DNA of 46,484 nucleotides, from assembly GCF_000743355.1 (NCBI RefSeq), contig NZ_JQEI01000047.1:1-46484 (forward strand), read 5' to 3'. Below, piece after piece: positions 12,547 through 21,488 of this stretch. Position 1 is the stretch's first letter, and every line of letters starts with the position of its first letter. This DNA comes from Serratia sp. Ag1 (GTDB lineage: Bacteria; Pseudomonadota; Gammaproteobacteria; Enterobacterales; Enterobacteriaceae). Under the pieces are notes generated by a model. It was not told the DNA's origin. It was given only the letters and a program-made list of their open reading frames with translations, and did not search any database. A program made the translations under genes and the position numbers.

Positions 12547-13899
12547 ATGACGAAACATTATGATTATCTAGCAATTGGCGGCGGCAGCGGCGGTATCGCA
12601 TCGATCAACCGGGCAGCCATGTATGGCCAGAAATGCGCATTGATTGAAGCCAAAGAACTGGGTGGCACCTGCGTGAACGTGGGTTGTGTACCGAAAAAAG
12701 TGATGTGGCATGCGGCACAGATCGCTGAAGCTATTCATCTCTATGGCCCAGACTACGGCTTTGATACCACGGTTAACGCATTTGACTGGAAAAAGCTGGT
12801 AGCGAACCGTACCGCCTACATTGATCGCATTCATAACTCCTACGACAACGTACTGGCTAAAAACAAAGTTGATGTGATCAAAGGATTCGCCCGCTTCGTT
12901 GACGCCCACACGGTAGAAGTCAACGGCGAAACCATTACCGCCGATCACATCCTGATCGCCACCGGTGGCCGTCCAAGCTACCCGAATATTCCTGGCGCAG
13001 AATACGGCATCAACTCAGACGGCTTTTTCGAGCTGGACGCCATGCCGAAACGCGTAGCCGTGGTGGGCGCGGGCTACATTGCGGTGGAATTGGCCGGGGT
13101 AATGAACGCACTGGGAGCAGAAACCCATCTGTTCGTGCGCAAACAGACACCGCTGCGCGCATTTGATCCGATGATTGTAGAAACGCTGGTTGAGGTGATG
13201 AACACCGAAGGGCCACAATTGCACACCGAATCCGTGCCAAAAGCCATCGTCAAAAACGCCGATGGTAGCCTGACGCTACAACTGGAAAACGGCAAAGAGT
13301 TCATCGTCGACAGCCTGGTATGGGCGATTGGCCGTGAACCCGCTACCGACAACCTGAATCTGGCGGTCACCGGGGTGAAAACCAACGCCAAAGGTTACAT
13401 TGAAGTGGATAAATTCCAGAACACCAATGTAAAAGGCATCTACGCCGTTGGTGACAACACGGGTGCGGTTGAGCTGACTCCGGTCGCGGTTGCCGCTGGC
13501 CGCCGTCTGTCTGAACGCCTGTTTAACAACAAGCCGGACGAGCATCTGGATTACAGCAATATTGCTACCGTGGTATTCAGCCACCCGCCGATCGGTACTA
13601 TTGGCCTGACCGAGCCACAGGCAAAAGAGCAGTTTGGCGAAGATCAGGTTAAGGTCTATAAATCTGCCTTTACCCCCATGTACAGCGCCATCACCCAGCA
13701 CCGCCAGCCGTGCCGCATGAAGCTGGTGTGCGTGGGTGCAGAAGAGAAGATCGTCGGCCTGCACGGCATTGGTTTTGCCATGGATGAAATCCTGCAGGGC
13801 TTCGCCGTGGCAGTCAAAATGGGCGCAACCAAGAAAGATTTCGACAACACCGTGGCGATCCACCCAACCGTAGCGGAAGAGTTTGTGACCATGCGCTAA
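12547..13899 (+). CDS. gor: Glutathione-disulfide reductase
   Basis: FAD/NADPH flavoenzyme that regenerates reduced glutathione in the cytoplasm. The 450 residues match E. coli Gor in length and motifs: FAD dinucleotide fold [16 protein letters not shown] at the N-terminus, redox disulfide [13 protein letters not shown] (about 39-51), NADPH-binding [12 protein letters not shown], second FAD site IYAVGDNTG, and the C-terminal catalytic histidine in [17 protein letters not shown] 12547 has a modest GGAAA site. The start follows the divergent RTX gene rather than rlmJ, its E. coli neighbour. Confidence 0.97.
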
Positions 13900-14198: not shown

Positions 14199-17100
14199 TC
14201 AGAAGTCGATTTTTAATTTGGCATAAAAACCGTTTGAGGTGACATCGCTGTTATATGCACCGGTGTAGGAGATGCCGAACGTCGCCGCGTTGTTAAGTTT
14301 GGTTTCAATGCCCAACCCCACGCCAAGCAGATGAGACAATTTACCGCCCTGGATTTTAGCCACTCCGCTATCGGCCAGGTGCATCGTCGCTTCCGGTGTG
14401 GTGTCCCCAAAGAAACGCGTCCCATACAGATCGCTTTTCACGGCCATCTTCACGTCACCCAAGGTAAATGGCAGCGCAGCACGGGCACCCAACGTGGTGA
14501 CCTGTAGATTCTGGTTATCAACGTCGGTGGTGAACTGCATATTGTTAACCGTTTCAACATAACCATTGGATTCAACATGCAACCAACCGAAACCGGCATA
14601 CGACTCAACGGAATAGCTCTCCGTCGTCCATCCTGAATAGGCCGCTTCGGCAAACAGTTGGGTAATATTCACATCCGGGGAAACGGAATTGCTGGCGGTT
14701 TGATCGAGAACCTGCAAAGTGCGATGAGCATCACGACTTTGCCGGGTGTGCATCGCACCATAATTCAGCGAAACCAGGTCGGCGATGTTAGAAACACCGT
14801 ACACCCCAAAGTGCAGATCGTCGCTGTCGATTTTACTCTGCCTATCCCCTTTAAAATCGGTACTGCCCGCACCGAAGTACAGGCCCAGCTTGGTGCTGGG
14901 GCTGGCATCAATTTCACCACCGATTAAAGCCGCATAAAAATCGACGTCCATGCTTGATTGGCCGTAATCCACCGTAGACCAGCTACCGATTGGCGCAACC
15001 CAAAGGCGGCCTGCACCCCCCGACGTTTCCACATAACGGCCACCGCCTACACCAACGGCCTGATCTTTAACCACCCGCGACAGGGTCATGGCATTCACAA
15101 TGCTGGCATTTTGCGTATTCAGGTACATATCACTGCCGAGAGCATCGTTAGTATTGCGAACCTCATCGCCAGAGGCCATGAGCAGGGTATCGAACAAGGT
15201 GCCCGAACCGCTGCCTTCAATCGCCTGACCGATAGACCGGCCATTGTGGCTTGAGGCGTAAGAAGCGAATGTCACGTCCTGATTACGGCCAAAGCGGGCA
15301 GTCAGTGAATTACCGGAGATATCGACATCGGTTTTGAAGAATGCATACTGCGGTGTGGCTGTGGCTTGGTCGGCCCCGGTTAATGTCTCCGCAGTGACAG
15401 TTCCGGTCACTACGGTGCCATGATTAAACACCTCCTCGAACACGTCTTTATCGGTGGAACCCACGGTAATCATCGAGCCATGATTAAAGGTGAGCTGGCC
15501 TACGTTGACACTTGCACCCGTGCTGACCACATAAGTCCCGCCTGCGTTGACCTCAATATTCGCCTTATGGCTTTCGGTTGCAGCCAGTTCACCCTTCAGC
15601 GTAAAGGCATCGTTATAGCGGGCTAGAACACCGAATTTACCGCCGTTTACCGCCACGGTGCCGCTGCCAAATGACTCGGTGAAACCATACAAAGCCCCCT
15701 GTTCCACACGGGTATTGCCCTGATAGGTGTTATCACCCGTCATGATCAACGTGCCTGCACCGAGCTTCACCAGAGAACCGGTATAAAGATCGGCATCAAT
15801 CCTGGCTTGAATAGCCGCCGCACGCTGGCTGTAGTAATCTTGCCGCCATTGTTCAGCATCTGCTTGGCTAACGATGTGATCCGTTGGATCGTTGTTACCG
15901 TCGTTGACCACGAAGCTGTTACCTAACTCGTAGGCTCCACCCGCCGCAATGCCCTGAGCCTGGTAGTTCTGTAGCCAAGCCAGATCTTCCTGTTCACGCG
16001 CATCCAACGCTTGCTGGCTGATATTATTGCTCCAGACGTCAAGCGGCGTGCTGGCAAGGTTGTACTCAAACTTGCCGAGGAATTGACCGGGCCCATACAT
16101 GCCTTTATCCAGATCCGGCACACCCCAGCCGTAGCGAACATCGGGCACACCATCAGCCGCCGTCCAGTTTTCCAAGGTGCTACCATCCAGGTTCTGGTGG
16201 CTGGCAGTAGTAAGCAACACCTCTCGCACCTGAAGCGCACTCATATCCTGATAGCGCGAGAGCAGAACGCCCATGGCACCGGCAACGTGCGGCGCAGACA
16301 TTGAGGTGCCGGATGAATTACCCCAGCCAGCCGCGCCGGTTGCTGCATTCACCGTGGTTGAGTAGATGCCACTTCCCGGTGCTGCCACGGTCCACCATTT
16401 GGCCTCGCCAGCCTCGTTCCAGGTATAAGACAGCGCGTATTTGTCAGTACCCGTGACCCGCTGTAGCCCGGCAACCGCTATCCAATGCTGCTCGGCTTCA
16501 GGATGATAATAGGGGTAAAGTGCGCGATAAAATGGATTGGCGAAGTCGCGGTTACCAGTGGTAAATATCTGCACCACCGTTGTTCCCTTCACAGCATCGT
16601 AGGCGGCGTCCACAAAGGAGGGATTGGCACCATACTTTTTATTGAAATAGAAATACTCATATTCCGACTGGGTCATATTATTTGCCGGTAGGTGAACCCC
16701 GGTGTTGCCGCCGTCATTACCGGTTGAGCCGTTGTCAGCAATACGAATATTAGTGCCCCAACTGTTATTAATCACTTCAGCACCGGCATCGACCAGCGCT
16801 TTCCAACCGGTATAGAAAAACGAATAATCCTGGAACGGGCCATAGTTATTGCCGTCAGTTCCGCCGGTATTAGCGACATAAATATCGGCCCCCCAGGCGA
16901 CACCATGCATTCCTTCACCGTCGCGATTAGCCCCAACGGTGCCAGTCACGTGGGTTCCGTGCCCATCATTCACCTCGGCGATCCATTGGCCGGTAAGATC
17001 GAAGGCTTCACCCGCAGTATATTCGCCCTGTGAACCCACCGCCGACTGGGGATAACGCAAACCGGAGGAACCGTAATTACCAACCGCTGCCACCGCATGG

Positions 17101-17438
17101 AAACGATCGCTATTGAGATCCGGATGAATAAAAAGCAGCGCACCGGAATCCATGACGCCAACCCTGGCCCCTTGCCCGGAGAAACCCAGCATATAAGCAC
17201 TGGAAGCTTTCATCGCAGCCAGGCCCCAATCTTTGCTGTACTCTTCGGTTTCCCAACTGGCTTTATCGCCAATCAGGCCCGGCTCTGCATAGGCTGCCCC
17301 GTCCATTGGCAACATGGCGGCGGTAATCGCCAAGGCAATCAGAGACTTATTAGGCGTTACCTTACCCCTTTGGGTTGCATTCGCTATGTTATGTTCTTGG
17401 TAAGCTCGGTAAAAAAATATCTTTGAAATCAATTTCAT
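14199..17438 (-). CDS. Subtilisin-type serine protease autotransporter
   Basis: A 1079-residue type Va secreted protease. A long N-terminal export region (about 1-52, with a cluster of polar residues before the hydrophobic core and cleavage near AYAEP) is followed by an S8 domain with catalytic Asp97 (GVMDSG), His160 (NDGHGTHVTGT) and Ser379 (SSGTSMSAPHVAG), plus oxyanion Asn in INNSWG. A passenger beta-helix segment (AGTLIMTGDNTYQGNTRV, about 555-580) and a C-terminal beta-barrel of about 270 residues ending LKIDF complete it. It resembles the Serratia marcescens extracellular serine protease family. ATG 17438 has AAGGA. It is divergent from the sensor locus at 17717. Confidence 0.92.
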   Translation of the reverse strand: MKLISKIFFYRAYQEHNIANATQRGKVTPNKSLIALAITAAMLPMDGAAYAEPGLIGDKASWETEEYSKDWGLAAMKASSAYMLGFSGQGARVGVMDSGALLFIHPDLNSDRFHAVAAVGNYGSSGLRYPQSAVGSQGEYTAGEAFDLTGQWIAEVNDGHGTHVTGTVGANRDGEGMHGVAWGADIYVANTGGTDGNNYGPFQDYSFFYTGWKALVDAGAEVINNSWGTNIRIADNGSTGNDGGNTGVHLPANNMTQSEYEYFYFNKKYGANPSFVDAAYDAVKGTTVVQIFTTGNRDFANPFYRALYPYYHPEAEQHWIAVAGLQRVTGTDKYALSYTWNEAGEAKWWTVAAPGSGIYSTTVNAATGAAGWGNSSGTSMSAPHVAGAMGVLLSRYQDMSALQVREVLLTTASHQNLDGSTLENWTAADGVPDVRYGWGVPDLDKGMYGPGQFLGKFEYNLASTPLDVWSNNISQQALDAREQEDLAWLQNYQAQGIAAGGAYELGNSFVVNDGNNDPTDHIVSQADAEQWRQDYYSQRAAAIQARIDADLYTGSLVKLGAGTLIMTGDNTYQGNTRVEQGALYGFTESFGSGTVAVNGGKFGVLARYNDAFTLKGELAATESHKANIEVNAGGTYVVSTGASVNVGQLTFNHGSMITVGSTDKDVFEEVFNHGTVVTGTVTAETLTGADQATATPQYAFFKTDVDISGNSLTARFGRNQDVTFASYASSHNGRSIGQAIEGSGSGTLFDTLLMASGDEVRNTNDALGSDMYLNTQNASIVNAMTLSRVVKDQAVGVGGGRYVETSGGAGRLWVAPIGSWSTVDYGQSSMDVDFYAALIGGEIDASPSTKLGLYFGAGSTDFKGDRQSKIDSDDLHFGVYGVSNIADLVSLNYGAMHTRQSRDAHRTLQVLDQTASNSVSPDVNITQLFAEAAYSGWTTESYSVESYAGFGWLHVESNGYVETVNNMQFTTDVDNQNLQVTTLGARAALPFTLGDVKMAVKSDLYGTRFFGDTTPEATMHLADSGVAKIQGGKLSHLLGVGLGIETKLNNAATFGISYTGAYNSDVTSNGFYAKLKIDF

Positions 17439-17716: not shown

Positions 17717-18211
17717 ATGTTCACCCACTTGCTCAGAATAATCACTTTGGCGTTCGCTGCTCTGGTGATCGGTCAATCTCCTGCATTAAGTTTCACGCTG
17801 GAAGTCACAGGGAATATCAGCCACTTTACGGATGAGGCAAATCACCGCTATATCTTTACCGATGAACAGCTATTTTCCATGCCGGTACACACGATCAGCA
17901 CCACGACGCCTTGGACTCCATTGGAAAAATTTGAGGGTATTGCGCTGTCTGAAATATTGAATACTGTTGGAGCCAAGGGAACCATGATGGCGTTTTACGC
18001 GTTGAACGATTATTACATCAATATCCCCATCAGCGACGTTGAAAAATATCACATGATTCTGGCCTATAAGATGGGAGGAAATCGGCTGAAGATACGTGAT
18101 TTCGGGCCATTATTTCTCATTTACCCCCGTGATGCCGGTGGGAAGGAGTTGAATTCCCCGCTGTACAATTCACGCTTTATCTGGCAAGTCTATCGGATCG
18201 AAATCAAATGA
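17717..18211 (+). CDS. Periplasmic sulfite-oxidase-fold (molybdopterin-binding-like) protein, probable accessory sensor
   Basis: A 164-residue protein with a signal peptide (about 1-25, cleavage near ALSFT) and a domain resembling the oxidoreductase molybdopterin-binding fold: LEVTGNI at the start, LEKFEGIALSEILNTVGAKG, YALNDYYINIPISDV, and the closing IYPRD...RFIWQVYRIEIK. The mature chain has no cysteine at all, so the Mo-ligating cysteine of true sulfite oxidases is missing; a ligand-binding or signalling role is more likely than catalysis. Its TGA overlaps an ATG of the kinase gene (ATGA, 18208-18211), so the two are probably co-translated. Fold assignment is from motif resemblance. Confidence 0.7.
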   Translation: MFTHLLRIITLAFAALVIGQSPALSFTLEVTGNISHFTDEANHRYIFTDEQLFSMPVHTISTTTPWTPLEKFEGIALSEILNTVGAKGTMMAFYALNDYYINIPISDVEKYHMILAYKMGGNRLKIRDFGPLFLIYPRDAGGKELNSPLYNSRFIWQVYRIEIK

Positions 18212-19993
18212 AGCTGACTCAGTATTAAACATGGCAGCAAGTTAGCGATTCCAGCGGCTTTCGCGGTATTATTTTTAGTTGCCTCTGCAGTAACGCTTTA
18301 TTCTTACAGTGCGATCCTCTCCCAAAAAGGGCTGTATGCGATTGCTGGTACTCAGGAAAACTACTCTTGGTCAATTGCCAAATTTGCCATCAAGTTGTCT
18401 GAGTTCGAAACCTTCATTGAACAGCAAAAAAATACCAGCCAACGTGACATTGAAGAATTAAAACTGAAATTCGAGATCCTGTACTCGCGTTTTTCGGTGC
18501 TGGAAAAGGTCTCTGAATCTACGCAACCCTTGTATCGGGAACCCGGTTATGCGCAGGTCATCCAAAAAATGCGTCATCAGATCGATAATCTTGATGACCT
18601 GTTTAACCAGCAAAGCCTTAACTTTCAACAGATCTCACAAGCCTTAACCCAGCTCAAGCCACTGTCTATTGAAATGGCCAATCTCACGGATCATGCAGAA
18701 GTTAAACAGCGTACTGGGGCCTATGATGATTTTATCGAGAAGCGCCGCATTATTTTCTATGGGCTGGTGATTGTTATCTTTTCGGTCACCGCCCTGATCG
18801 TGATCACTTTGCTGGTTTTGCGCCAGCAACGCCTGACCATTCGGCAACAGGCGCTGGCAATCGAAGCAGAGAAAGCCACTCGCACTAAAAATGCCTTCTT
18901 GGGTGCCATCGGCCACGAACTGCGGACCTCGCTGCAAAGTATCATGTCTGCGATTGATGTCCTGGTGAATACCCAGTTCTCGGCTGAACATGCGGATACT
19001 TTCCAGCGCCTGGAGAGCGCAGCGCAACAAATTGAACGGCAGATGAGAGACTTAACCGATTATGCTCACCTGGAAAGTGGTATGATGGAACTGCGCATAG
19101 TGCCATTTAGCGCCAGAAAACTGATTAAAGAGACTGCCGACGAAATTGCCCTGCTGACGCACAAGAAAAACATCAAACTCATCTGCGAGTTAGATCTCAA
19201 TACAGCGCTGATTTATTCCGATCCGCTGCGGATCCGGCAAATTCTTATCAATCTGCTGACCAATGCCTTTAAATACACCGAGCACGGAACCATTACCTTA
19301 CGCAGCCGCCTTAGCAGCCAACCAGAGGGTTCGGCACTGGTTGTCGAAGTAGCCGATACCGGGATTGGTATCAGAGAAGAGGCCCTGCCACAGATTTTCC
19401 AGCCTTTTACCCAACTGGATCAGTCACATACTCGTCGCTACAGTGGCGTCGGCATGGGGTTGGCCATCGTCTACGGCTTGGTCGAATTGCTTAAAGGCTC
19501 GATTAAAGTCACCAGCGAAGTGAAAAAGGGCAGCACCTTTAGCGTCAGCATTCCTGTTGAAATCAGCACAGAGGAGCCAGCAGAAGCCAATCCACCGCCG
19601 GAAACCTCGTCGCTGAGGAAACAACAGCAGATTCTGATCGTGGACGATAACCCAGCCGTCGGCCATGCATTCATCACCTTGCTCGACAAATTGGGCTATC
19701 AGTATGAGTTGTGCAGTTCATCGGAGCGCGCCTTGCAAAAACTGCTGCGCCGCCCTTACGACGCGCTGCTGCTCGATCTGCAAATGCCCGGAATGGATGG
19801 AGCTATGGTCGCGAAACAGTTGCGTAGCCAGCGAGGCCCAAACCGCAACATTCCGATTATCGGTATCAGCGCCTATGCGCCCGAATTACTTTCTACCGAA
19901 CAGCGGGCCATGTTTGATGACTACCTGATGAAACCGGTGCGCATGAGTATGCTGTCTACGTCCTTGAATGCCCTGTTTACCGCTAAAGATTAA
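18208..19993 (+). CDS. Hybrid sensor histidine kinase with a frameshift near its start
   Basis: Membrane sensor kinase. Order: TM1 (coded at about 18245-18300), periplasmic coiled region, TM2 (FYGLVIVIFSVTALIVITLL, about 18755-18820), HisKA with phospho-His in AIGHELRTSLQS, HATPase with NLLTNAFKYTEHGT, DTGIGI and GVGMGLAI, and a C-terminal receiver with LIVDDNPAVGH, phospho-Asp in LLLDLQMPGMDG and MKP. The natural start is ATG 18208, overlapping the upstream stop, but after MKLTQY the frame hits TAA; removing one T at 18225-18226 restores YKHGSKLAIP and a 594-residue protein. A TTG at 18395 gives 532 residues without TM1, and ATT 18224 is a possible rare start. Sequencing error is possible. 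Confidence 0.8.
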
Positions 19994-20834
19994 AGCAACG
20001 CTGCAGTGCGGCTTCGATCACATGGAGCCGCACCGGTTTTTCATAAGGGCCAAGCACGTCATAATCACGCATCGCTCTGGCGATTTCAGATTCACGCAGG
20101 CCAGTGCCCAGTTGCCCGGTCAATACCAATACCGGTGCATCGGGATGATCGGAATTACGAATGGTTTCAATACACTTCTGCGCCGTTTCCTGCCCTATCA
20201 GCCAATCCACGACATAACCATCAAACGGGCTTTTATGCAGCGCCTGGCACAAGCTATCAACATCGTAGAAAGCAACGGCGTTAAAACCTTGAGCAGTAAG
20301 ATATTTGGTTAATTCGTCAGCGGCCTGATGGGCGTCATCCAATACCGCAATACTTAAACGCTCATCTTCAACGCTACCAGGGCGGATTTCGATCAGCTCC
20401 ACGCAAAAACGCTGGCCCGCAGGAGCCTCATTTGCGCGATAAATCGTCCACTGGCCTTCCTGCTGCAAGGCAACAAATTCAGCCAACTGGGGGCCAGCCA
20501 GCTCATCACCGATATGGCCAATGCAAGGAAGCGCGACACCGGCTACCGAAAAGATGGCATCCTGCGCCATAGTTTGGCTAAACACTGCGTATTCGGGGAG
20601 AATATCAATGATGGCCGCCGGGTTTTCACCCAAAGCCATAGCTACACGATTGATTTGCTCCAGCGTCCACGGGCTTTGCCCTTTCAGCTTACGGTGAGCG
20701 TGCGAAAAGCTGAGATCCAATATCCGACTGAGCTCTTTTGCATGCTGACGCTTACCAATCCCATGGTGAAGAAAGAGTTCCCTGACCTTGCCTGCAATCG
20801 ACTGCGAATCGAATTTTTGCTGATTGTTATACAT
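19983..20834 (-). CDS. Response regulator with N-terminal BetR-like HTH and C-terminal receiver
   Basis: A 283-residue regulator with inverted domain order. Residues about 10-75 form a BetR-like helix-turn-helix (GKRQHAKELSRILDLSFSHAHRKLKG, then TLEQINRVAMALGE). A middle linker of about 85 residues precedes a receiver domain at about 160-283 with acidic pair LDD, phospho-acceptor Asp in GYVVDWLIG, VLTG and the conserved Lys in YEKPV. ATG 20834 follows GAAGGATAAA. It converges on the kinase gene, sharing 11 bp at the 3' ends (19983-19993), and is the obvious partner of that hybrid kinase. Targets are unknown; the adjacent protease is one candidate. Confidence 0.8.
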   Translation of the reverse strand: MYNNQQKFDSQSIAGKVRELFLHHGIGKRQHAKELSRILDLSFSHAHRKLKGQSPWTLEQINRVAMALGENPAAIIDILPEYAVFSQTMAQDAIFSVAGVALPCIGHIGDELAGPQLAEFVALQQEGQWTIYRANEAPAGQRFCVELIEIRPGSVEDERLSIAVLDDAHQAADELTKYLTAQGFNAVAFYDVDSLCQALHKSPFDGYVVDWLIGQETAQKCIETIRNSDHPDAPVLVLTGQLGTGLRESEIARAMRDYDVLGPYEKPVRLHVIEAALQRCFNL

Positions 20835-21322
20835 TTTATCCTTCGATCTTTTTTACTGATTTATCAGTCGCTTTGGTGCTTTCTGTGTAGAAACGTTATC
20901 GAAAACTCGCATATTATGCAATCTCAAATCAAAAGCTTGCTTGACACGCCATCTTTTATAGTCAAACATGGCATGAAAAGCTACATATTATAAAAACGAT
21001 ACTAGACTCATCCGTTCATAATAACCATAACAGCACCAGGGAAATTTTGAACCGGTCGCAGTTCCTGAAATCAGGACGTATGCATCAGGTGTTCTGCAAG
21101 CCGTGTGTAGTTTAGCCATCGTGCTAGTCGTTTTACCCACCATTGAACCGGGCCCGCAAGGGTTCCGGTTTTTTATTGGCTGCAATGCCCCGTAGCGATG
21201 GATGATGCTCTTGCCAAATTGCAGCGCTATCCATAAAACGCGCCCTGCTCGAGATGCATAAAGTGGTATTGTGTAGGGGGGTTAAAAACGATTCAGCGTT
21301 TTTTCATGCAATGAAAAGCGAT
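20835..21322. other. Gene-poor spacer with an orphan terminator
   Basis: About 490 bp without a gene I can support. It holds the promoter side of the HTH-receiver gene, a terminator-like hairpin (separate entry) and short ORFs with no recognisable content, including a 65-codon minus-strand frame at 20988-21185. A sRNA or mobile-element remnant is possible. Confidence 0.35.
21147..21174 (+). terminator. Orphan intrinsic terminator-like hairpin
   Basis: ACCGG (21147-21151) and CCC (21153-21155) pair with GGG (21160-21162) and CCGGT (21165-21169) around a GCAA loop, followed by TTTTT. No plus-strand gene lies upstream within the spacer, so it may end a small RNA. Confidence 0.5.
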
Positions 21323-21437
21323 TATACCCAAAATAATTCGAACTGCCTGTAGGCAGCCACCAGGAGCATAGCGGACTGTGTGACTGAGGCGAGGGTGCGC
21401 AGCCAACACCCAAGCAACTTGAAGTATGACGGGTATA
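21323..21437. repeat. ERIC element 1
   Basis: 115-bp enterobacterial repetitive intergenic consensus copy. It begins TATACCCAAAATAATTCG, has the core CAGGAGCATAG...TGTGACTGAGGCGA and GCAGCCAAC, and ends GACGGGTATA, so TATACCC and GGGTATA form the terminal inverted repeats. It closely resembles the copy at 30880-31006. Confidence 0.9.
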
Positions 21438-21488
21438 AATTCACGCTAACGCCATAATACTAAAAAAATAATAGCCAGAAACTGACTT

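What the first reader, a model, noticed from the sequence alone, without database searches (positions are those of the whole stretch)
17717..20834. Candidate undescribed three-component sensor: cysteine-free sulfite-oxidase-fold protein, hybrid kinase and HTH-receiver regulator
A secreted molybdopterin-domain-like protein is translationally coupled to a hybrid histidine kinase, and a BetR-like HTH plus receiver regulator converges on it with an 11-bp 3' overlap. The combination suggests that the periplasmic protein is a sensory partner for the kinase. I know of no named system with this composition.
Basis: partly seen in the sequence, partly recalled or inferred. Interest (0 to 1): 0.8.

Follow-up and report, generated by a model that had tools for sequence, protein, structure and literature searches.

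The report
Pterin-sensor kinase with dedicated regulator
A small secreted protein of a known pterin-sensing family, a membrane kinase and a DNA-binding regulator form a conserved signalling set; the protein-kinase pair is already named in print, but the regulator as third member, and copies of the set beside plasmid DNA-transfer genes, were not found in print here.

Summary
The three genes are real and at the stated places. The small protein is a PruR-type pterin-binding protein (best solved matches 7KOS and 7RKB), and PruR next to a sensor kinase is already named: PruR-DTB. So "no named system" is wrong for that pair. The co-occurrence guess is right: of 80 loci found with the regulator alone, 70 also hold PruR, in Alpha-, Beta- and Gammaproteobacteria and in two layouts; some have a fourth, glycosyltransferase-9-like gene. 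The parts of the PruR review that I saw do not mention this regulator. The window's genome has a second copy. In 7 of 8 plasmid regions with the four-gene set that I read, it stands divergent from the first genes of a conjugation system, of three unrelated types. Two departures: the WX7E motif keeps W but has K for E, and the kinase's overlapping ATG is out of frame with the kinase body here, although in frame in 8 of 8 close relatives. Most likely a pterin-responsive phosphorelay whose output is the BetR-receiver protein; ligand, phosphotransfer and targets are inferred. New variant of a known kind.

The parts
17717..18211 (+). PruR-type periplasmic pterin-binding protein (164 aa; W66, N97, Y99 kept; no Cys)
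18208..18228 (+). ATG overlapping the pruR stop; here reads MKLTQY then stop, out of frame with the kinase body
18218..19993 (+). hybrid histidine kinase, open frame (first ATG/GTG/TTG of this frame at 18395); DcpA-type periplasmic domain, HisKA, HATPase_c, receiver
18368..18370 (+). Trp codon of the WX7E-like motif (W kept; position +8 is Lys, not Glu)
18887..19081 (+). HisKA domain of the kinase
   Evidence: residues 224-288 of the frame from 18218
19220..19561 (+). HATPase_c domain of the kinase
   Evidence: residues 335-448
19631..19963 (+). receiver domain of the kinase
   Evidence: residues 472-582
19983..20834 (-). BetR-HTH plus C-terminal receiver regulator (283 aa); converges on the kinase with an 11-bp overlap (19983-19993)
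20938..20968 (.). inverted repeat TG(T/C)TTGAC-N15-GTCAA(A/G)CA about 0.1 kb upstream of the regulator; candidate operator, core conserved in nine Serratia chromosomal upstream regions aligned

Best explanation
A PruR-DTB-type pterin-sensing system with a dedicated output regulator. Inferred chain: a reduced pterin in the periplasm binds PruR (17717-18211); PruR docks on the helical DcpA-type periplasmic domain of the hybrid kinase; this sets the kinase/phosphatase balance; phosphate passes from the kinase His, through its own receiver and perhaps an outside HPt protein, to Asp210 of the convergent BetR-receiver protein, whose N-terminal HTH binds DNA, probably including an inverted repeat upstream of its own gene. 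Shown here: gene identities, conservation of the set, homology of the sensor domain, intact phosphorylation residues, a conserved inverted repeat. Inferred: ligand, PruR-kinase contact, phosphotransfer, targets, sign. In this assembly the kinase start is broken, so the pathway may be silent in this strain.
For: PruR identity: phmmer 7kos 1.3e-28, 7rkb 1.4e-27, 7kp2 4.6e-21, with W66, N97 and Y99 aligned. Named precedent PruR-DTB. Sensor domain homologous to 14 WX7E-type partner domains: hhalign 99.1%, E 7.6e-19 over 159 columns, W on W. Linkage: 70 of 80 regulator loci hold PruR; kinase called beside it in 68 and present as split frames in the other 2. Among 21 PruR loci of near relatives, 12 of 13 kinase-type loci have the regulator and 0 of 8 others. 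Regulator Asp167, Asp210 and Lys266 invariant in 26 of 26 aligned members. Candidate operator core in 9 of 9 Serratia upstream regions aligned; no other place in the genome with under 2 mismatches. A protein of family NF005066 (dihydromonapterin reductase by recall) scores 368 bits, cut-off 249.
Against: No ligand, contact or phosphotransfer was tested. The E of WX7E is K here. No HPt lies in the set, so the relay is incomplete on paper. In 71 PruR-bearing genomes of the order, none of the window's genus, 0 carried a regulator match at 1e-14, and 5 of 20 PruR loci fetched there have a kinase without it, so the regulator is not a general part of PruR-kinase systems. 10 of 80 regulator loci show no PruR (L064 is partly masked; L120 ends at a contig end). 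The operator pattern was taken from this very site, and the total of matches up to 2 mismatches equals the reversed-pattern control (12 places each). The window kinase start is out of frame. Structure searches with the sensor domain gave no Foldseek match at 0.001 and otherwise generic helical bundles.
Confidence: 0.75

Rival explanations
1. PruR and the kinase are a PruR-DTB pair, but the convergent regulator is only a genomic neighbour and the kinase output is another response regulator.
For: The regulator is on the opposite strand in the window; PruR-kinase loci without it exist (5 of 20 fetched; L033); a regulator without PruR or kinase beside it exists on a Serratia fonticola plasmid.
Against: 70 of 80 regulator loci found without using PruR hold PruR, across three proteobacterial classes, 34 convergent and 36 co-directional; a chance neighbourhood would not be expected to survive such rearrangement.
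Confidence: 0.12
2. A small molybdenum enzyme of the sulfite-oxidase fold, with unrelated signalling genes beside it.
For: Pfam names the domain Oxidoreductase molybdopterin binding.
Against: No cysteine at all, Trp in its place as published for PruR, best solved matches are named pterin-binding proteins.
Confidence: 0.03
3. A decayed system: the kinase is a pseudogene in this strain and the rest is on its way out.
For: ATG 18208 out of frame with the kinase body; some relatives show broken frames too (L056 regulator, L061 regulator and kinase, L093 PruR and kinase).
Against: The rest of the kinase is open with its motifs, and its N-terminal region and receiver are 80.6-85.4% identical to the two nearest orthologues L024 and L025; one offset could be a sequence error; 8 of 8 close orthologues are in frame.
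Confidence: 0.1

Closest known systems
[quoted passage not shown]
   Same: PruR-type protein encoded just upstream of a membrane kinase with a DcpA-type periplasmic domain; SUOX-type protein with Trp for Cys; HisKA/HATPase/receiver
   Different: WX7E has K for E here; a BetR-receiver regulator (and in some loci a GT9-like gene) is added; neither appears in the passages and sections of the review that I saw
PruR-DcpA of Agrobacterium tumefaciens
   Same: PruR and homologous periplasmic domain
   Different: Output there is c-di-GMP turnover; here a kinase and a DNA-binding regulator
TorT-TorS (recalled), QseG-QseE
   Same: A separate extracytoplasmic partner speaks to a helical kinase sensor domain
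   Different: Partner folds differ (recalled); QseG-QseE appears only among generic helical matches
TraJ-type activators of F-like plasmids (recalled)
   Same: In F-like plasmids L206, L207 and L209 the set lies between traY and traM (L207) or an unnamed gene in its place, where F carries traJ
   Different: The window copy has no transfer gene found near it; domain make-up differs (recalled)

Membership tests
PruR | SUOX/Oxidored_molyb-type domain of about 170 aa related to solved PruR | tested here: met
   164 aa; Pfam 31.4 bits over 24; phmmer 7kos 1.3e-28
PruR | Mo-ligand Cys absent, Trp instead; conserved Tyr and Asn | tested here: met
   No Cys; W66, N97, Y99 align with the same residues of 7kos and 7rkb. 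That these are the residues meant is my reading of the motif; the review's numbering was not mapped
PruR | Secreted to the periplasm | tested here: inconclusive
   Sec-like N-terminus seen by eye only
PruR | Binds reduced pterin | not testable with these tools
   Needs purified protein
PruR-DTB | DcpA-type periplasmic domain in the downstream regulator | tested here: met
   hhalign A3 against 14 WX7E-type partner domains: 99.1%, E 7.6e-19
PruR-DTB | WX7E motif (in the vast majority, per review) | tested here: not met
   W kept, +8 is K in the window; E in 2 of 24 aligned members, both Rhizobium; W lost in 4 of 24. Filed therefore as a variant, not a plain member
PruR-DTB | Cytoplasmic sensor-kinase module | tested here: met
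   HisKA, HATPase_c, Response_reg over Pfam cut-offs; best NCBIfam hit TorS 264.3 bits, under its cut-off 676.5
PruR-DTB | Two-gene operon with pruR coupled to the kinase | tested here: inconclusive
   ATGA overlap in window and 8 of 8 close orthologues, but out of frame in the window
PruR-DcpA | GGDEF/EAL output | tested here: not met
   Kinase and receiver domains; no GGDEF or EAL among the Pfam matches
SUOX/MsrP enzymes | Cys ligand of molybdenum | tested here: not met
   No Cys in the protein
BetR-domain regulators | BetR HTH domain | tested here: met
   PF08667 106.9 bits over 21.6

The most novel reading that the evidence does not exclude
PruR-DTB plus BetR-receiver is a portable pterin-sensing switch that has been placed, more than once, at the control point of conjugation: plasmid copies (regulator, GT9-like protein, PruR, kinase) stand divergent from the first transfer genes of F-type, VirB-type and Dot/Icm-type (MPF_I) systems, so that plasmid transfer would answer to extracellular pterins. 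The chromosomal set in the window would be a relative with other targets.
Probability: 0.4. Interest if true: 0.85.

Novelty: new variant of a known kind. Interest (0 to 1): 0.62.

Why it matters
PruR-kinase systems are named, but no output regulator is given in the parts of the review seen here. The conserved BetR-receiver partner offers a concrete output and a candidate DNA site, so pterin signalling through a kinase becomes directly testable. If the plasmid copies control transfer, a new environmental cue (extracellular pterins) would govern conjugation in several plasmid groups of Enterobacterales.

Tried and rejected
Considered and dropped: molybdenum enzyme (no Cys); c-di-GMP output (no GGDEF/EAL); regulator as chance neighbour (70 of 80). 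Class-wide search with the regulator model (201 of 369 genomes) returned mostly receiver-only matches; in the capped list only the window's own genome gave full-length matches, so it was not used as a count. Class-wide PruR search: 17 of 369 genomes, own genome included. L037 counts as a kinase locus by its N-box only; my H-box pattern did not find a phospho-His there. The GGDEF/EAL and kinase calls rest on short patterns and one kinase model, on stretches of 3.7 to 9.5 kb (L023: 10.5 kb).

Papers, all search listings unless stated: 'BetR domain' with 'response regulator', 0; BetR, helix-turn-helix and receiver domain, 3, not opened; molybdopterin-binding, hybrid sensor kinase and Serratia, 0; molybdopterin, sensor histidine kinase, conjugative transfer, plasmid and transfer region, 0; plasmid two-component terms, 2 listings on Agrobacterium, not opened; IncFII, conjugative, molybdopterin-dependent oxidoreductase and Klebsiella pneumoniae, 0; PruR terms, of whose listings only PMC13259868 was opened: abstract, sections 7 and 8 and found passages. 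Library limits and the missing primary paper mean that absence is not proof.

Structure: sensor domain model (mean pLDDT 85.4, pTM 0.64) gave no Foldseek match at E 0.001 or better and then generic helical bundles; regulator model (84.7, pTM 0.48): the 50 rows shown match over about 125 residues, receivers, so nothing was learnt about its middle beta domain. A common operator between chromosome and plasmids was not found by the simple inverted-repeat scan. A second match of the loose core TTGAC-N15-GTCAA lies in the window at 12899-12923 and was not followed. A query piece named HKbody was translated in a wrong frame by my mistake; its rows are not used.

Full report
Observation. The window holds, at 17717-18211 (+), a 164-aa secreted-looking protein without cysteine; at 18218-19993 (+) the open frame of a hybrid histidine kinase; and at 19983-20834 (-) a 283-aa protein with an N-terminal BetR HTH domain and a C-terminal receiver. 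The receiver scores 29.0 bits against Pfam's 30.2, but it keeps the acidic pair, the phospho-acceptor Asp210 and Lys266. Kinase and regulator overlap by 11 bp at their 3' ends; the same 11 bp is found in 16 of 17 Serratia loci L043-L059, the exception L056 having a stop inside its regulator. Over all 34 convergent loci measured, 28 overlap and 6 do not.

The kinase start. The pruR stop overlaps an ATG (ATGA). In 8 of 8 close orthologues (L024-L031) this ATG reads in frame into the kinase. In the window it reads six codons to a stop, and the kinase body lies in another frame with no ATG, GTG or TTG before 18395. A start there would lose the first membrane helix and the W motif. The rest of the frame is open and conserved, so this is either a recent break or a sequence error. 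'Translationally coupled' holds for the relatives and not, as read, for this assembly.

Identity of the small protein. It matches solved pterin-binding proteins: 7kos 1.3e-28, 7rkb 1.4e-27, 7kom 3.7e-21, 7kp2 4.6e-21. The review PMC13259868 (sections 7 and 8 read) identifies 7KOS as Agrobacterium PruR and 7KP2 as Vibrio cholerae PruR, says that PruR has Trp for the Mo-binding Cys, and that PruR interacts with the periplasmic part of DcpA. W66, N97 and Y99 of the window protein align with the same residues of 7kos; that these are the residues the review means is my reading.

The pair is named. The same review describes PruR next to kinases with a DcpA-type periplasmic domain as PruR-DTB. The window kinase's periplasmic domain is homologous to 14 WX7E-type PruR-partner domains (hhalign 99.1%, E 7.6e-19, 159 columns). 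It departs in the motif: the W is kept, the residue at +8 is K. In the 24-row alignment of regulator-linked kinases +8 is E in 2 rows, both Rhizobium, and the W itself is lost in 4. I therefore call it a variant of PruR-DTB.

The third member. The regulator alone (alignment A1) was used to search the collection of 84,980 species genomes: 131 stretches matched, 112 were confirmed, the best 80 kept, so 32 weaker ones were not examined. Of the 80, 70 hold a PruR gene; the kinase was called beside it in 68 and is split over frames in L067 and L093. 34 are convergent as in the window and 36 co-directional. The 70 come from Serratia, Kluyvera, Klebsiella, Burkholderia, Variovorax, Xenophilus, Rhizobium and others. 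Of the 10 without PruR, L064 is masked next to the regulator and L120 ends at a contig end; L103 and L121 have a kinase beside the regulator. Conversely, among 21 of the 22 PruR places of the near relatives (one, L022, was not extended) 12 of 13 kinase-type loci have the regulator and 0 of 8 others (L037 is counted as kinase by its N-box only). Results against generality: in 71 other PruR-bearing genomes of the order 0 had a regulator match at 1e-14 (the same model finds the window copy at 1.1e-145), and of 20 PruR loci fetched there, chosen by me, 14 have GGDEF and/or EAL partners, 5 kinases, 1 none called, and none has the regulator. The set is thus a sublineage of PruR-kinase systems.

A fourth gene. 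A protein of about 330 aa, glycosyltransferase family 9-like (two of four tested over Pfam's cut-off, 24.1 and 23.0 against 22; two below, 13.9 and 14.0), sits beside pruR in 6 of the 21 near-relative loci and is found in 10 of the 80. tblastn found none in the window. Its role is unknown; modification of a pterin is only a thought.

Second copy and plasmids. The window's genome has another PruR on contig C94, with regulator, GT9-like gene and kinase, next to VirB1-, VirB3- and VirB4-like genes. Its regulator is 99.6% identical to that of K. pneumoniae plasmid pK66-45-4, so C94 is probably a plasmid (inference). In the plasmid collection the C94 regulator matches 467 records, 383 typed conjugative; the weaker matches include regulators without the set. 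The window PruR matches 638 records. I read ten plasmid regions, chosen by me for diversity. Eight (L203-L210) have the four-gene set regulator, GT9-like protein, PruR, kinase; all four were confirmed by profile in 8 of 8, also where the record calls them hypothetical. In 7 of these 8 the set is divergent from the start of the transfer operon: one MPF_I/Dot-Icm type (L203), two VirB type (L204, L205), four F type (L206-L209). The eighth (L210) is not. L211 has the regulator without PruR or kinase at the same spot before traY, and L212 the three-gene convergent layout without transfer genes in the stretch read. Among the 80 genome loci, a VirB1-like gene lies divergent within about 1 kb upstream of the regulator in 7 (L094, L101, L108, L109, L117, L118, L122); L101 and L122 are among those without PruR, and L094 and L109 may themselves be plasmid contigs. 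In F-like plasmids the set sits between traY and traM (L207) or an unnamed gene in its place (L206, L209), where F carries the activator traJ (recalled). For the window the same scan found no transfer gene.

A candidate DNA site. Upstream of the regulator, 20938-20968, lies TG(T/C)TTGAC-N15-GTCAA(A/G)CA. The core TTGAC-N15-GTCAA is kept in 9 of 9 Serratia chromosomal upstream regions aligned, in 5 of 5 of those checked by pattern. The pattern was taken from this site, so its own perfect match is by construction; what the genome search adds is that no other place has 0 or 1 mismatch, 11 others having 2, while the reversed control pattern also gave 12 places. It suggests autoregulation; it does not show it. 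The plasmid upstream regions examined lack this core.

How it most likely works. A reduced pterin binds PruR; PruR acts on the helical sensor domain (model mean pLDDT 85.4); the kinase passes phosphate, through its receiver and perhaps an outside HPt, to the BetR-receiver protein, which binds DNA. The genome has a protein of family NF005066 (by recall, dihydromonapterin reductase, FolM) at 368 bits, cut-off 249, a plausible pterin source. An invariant Cys104 in the regulator's middle domain (26 of 26) could be structural or redox-related. All steps from ligand to target are inferred.

Novelty. The protein-kinase pair is known. The regulator as constant partner, the K-for-E motif, the GT9-like companion and the plasmid placement were not found in the parts of the review that I saw ('plasmid' 0, 'conjugat' 0 occurrences) or by the paper searches listed; the primary paper was not available.

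Noticed in passing
own genome contig C94:7000-17500 (L023): Second PruR-kinase-regulator set with a GT9-like gene beside VirB-like genes; regulator 99.6% identical to that of a K. pneumoniae plasmid.
   Followed up: partly
L203-L209: Four-gene pterin-sensor set divergent from the head of transfer operons on seven plasmid regions of three transfer-system types.
   Followed up: partly
window 20523-20525 (-), regulator residue 104: Cysteine invariant in 26 of 26 aligned regulators, in the middle beta domain of the model.
   Followed up: no
L056, L061, L093: Broken reading frames in the regulator, kinase or PruR of relatives.
   Followed up: no
window 12899-12923: Second match of the loose core TTGAC-N15-GTCAA in the window; 0.01 expected by chance.
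   Followed up: no
window 21326-21438: Intergenic stretch bounded by tataccc and gggtata, looks like a small inverted-repeat element; by eye only.
   Followed up: no
window 14199-17438 (-): 1079-aa protein that looks by eye like an autotransporter with a subtilisin-like protease, divergent upstream neighbour of pruR.
   Followed up: no
L033, about 0.5 kb upstream of its PruR: Small HPt-like protein, by eye, beside a PruR-kinase locus without the BetR regulator.
   Followed up: no
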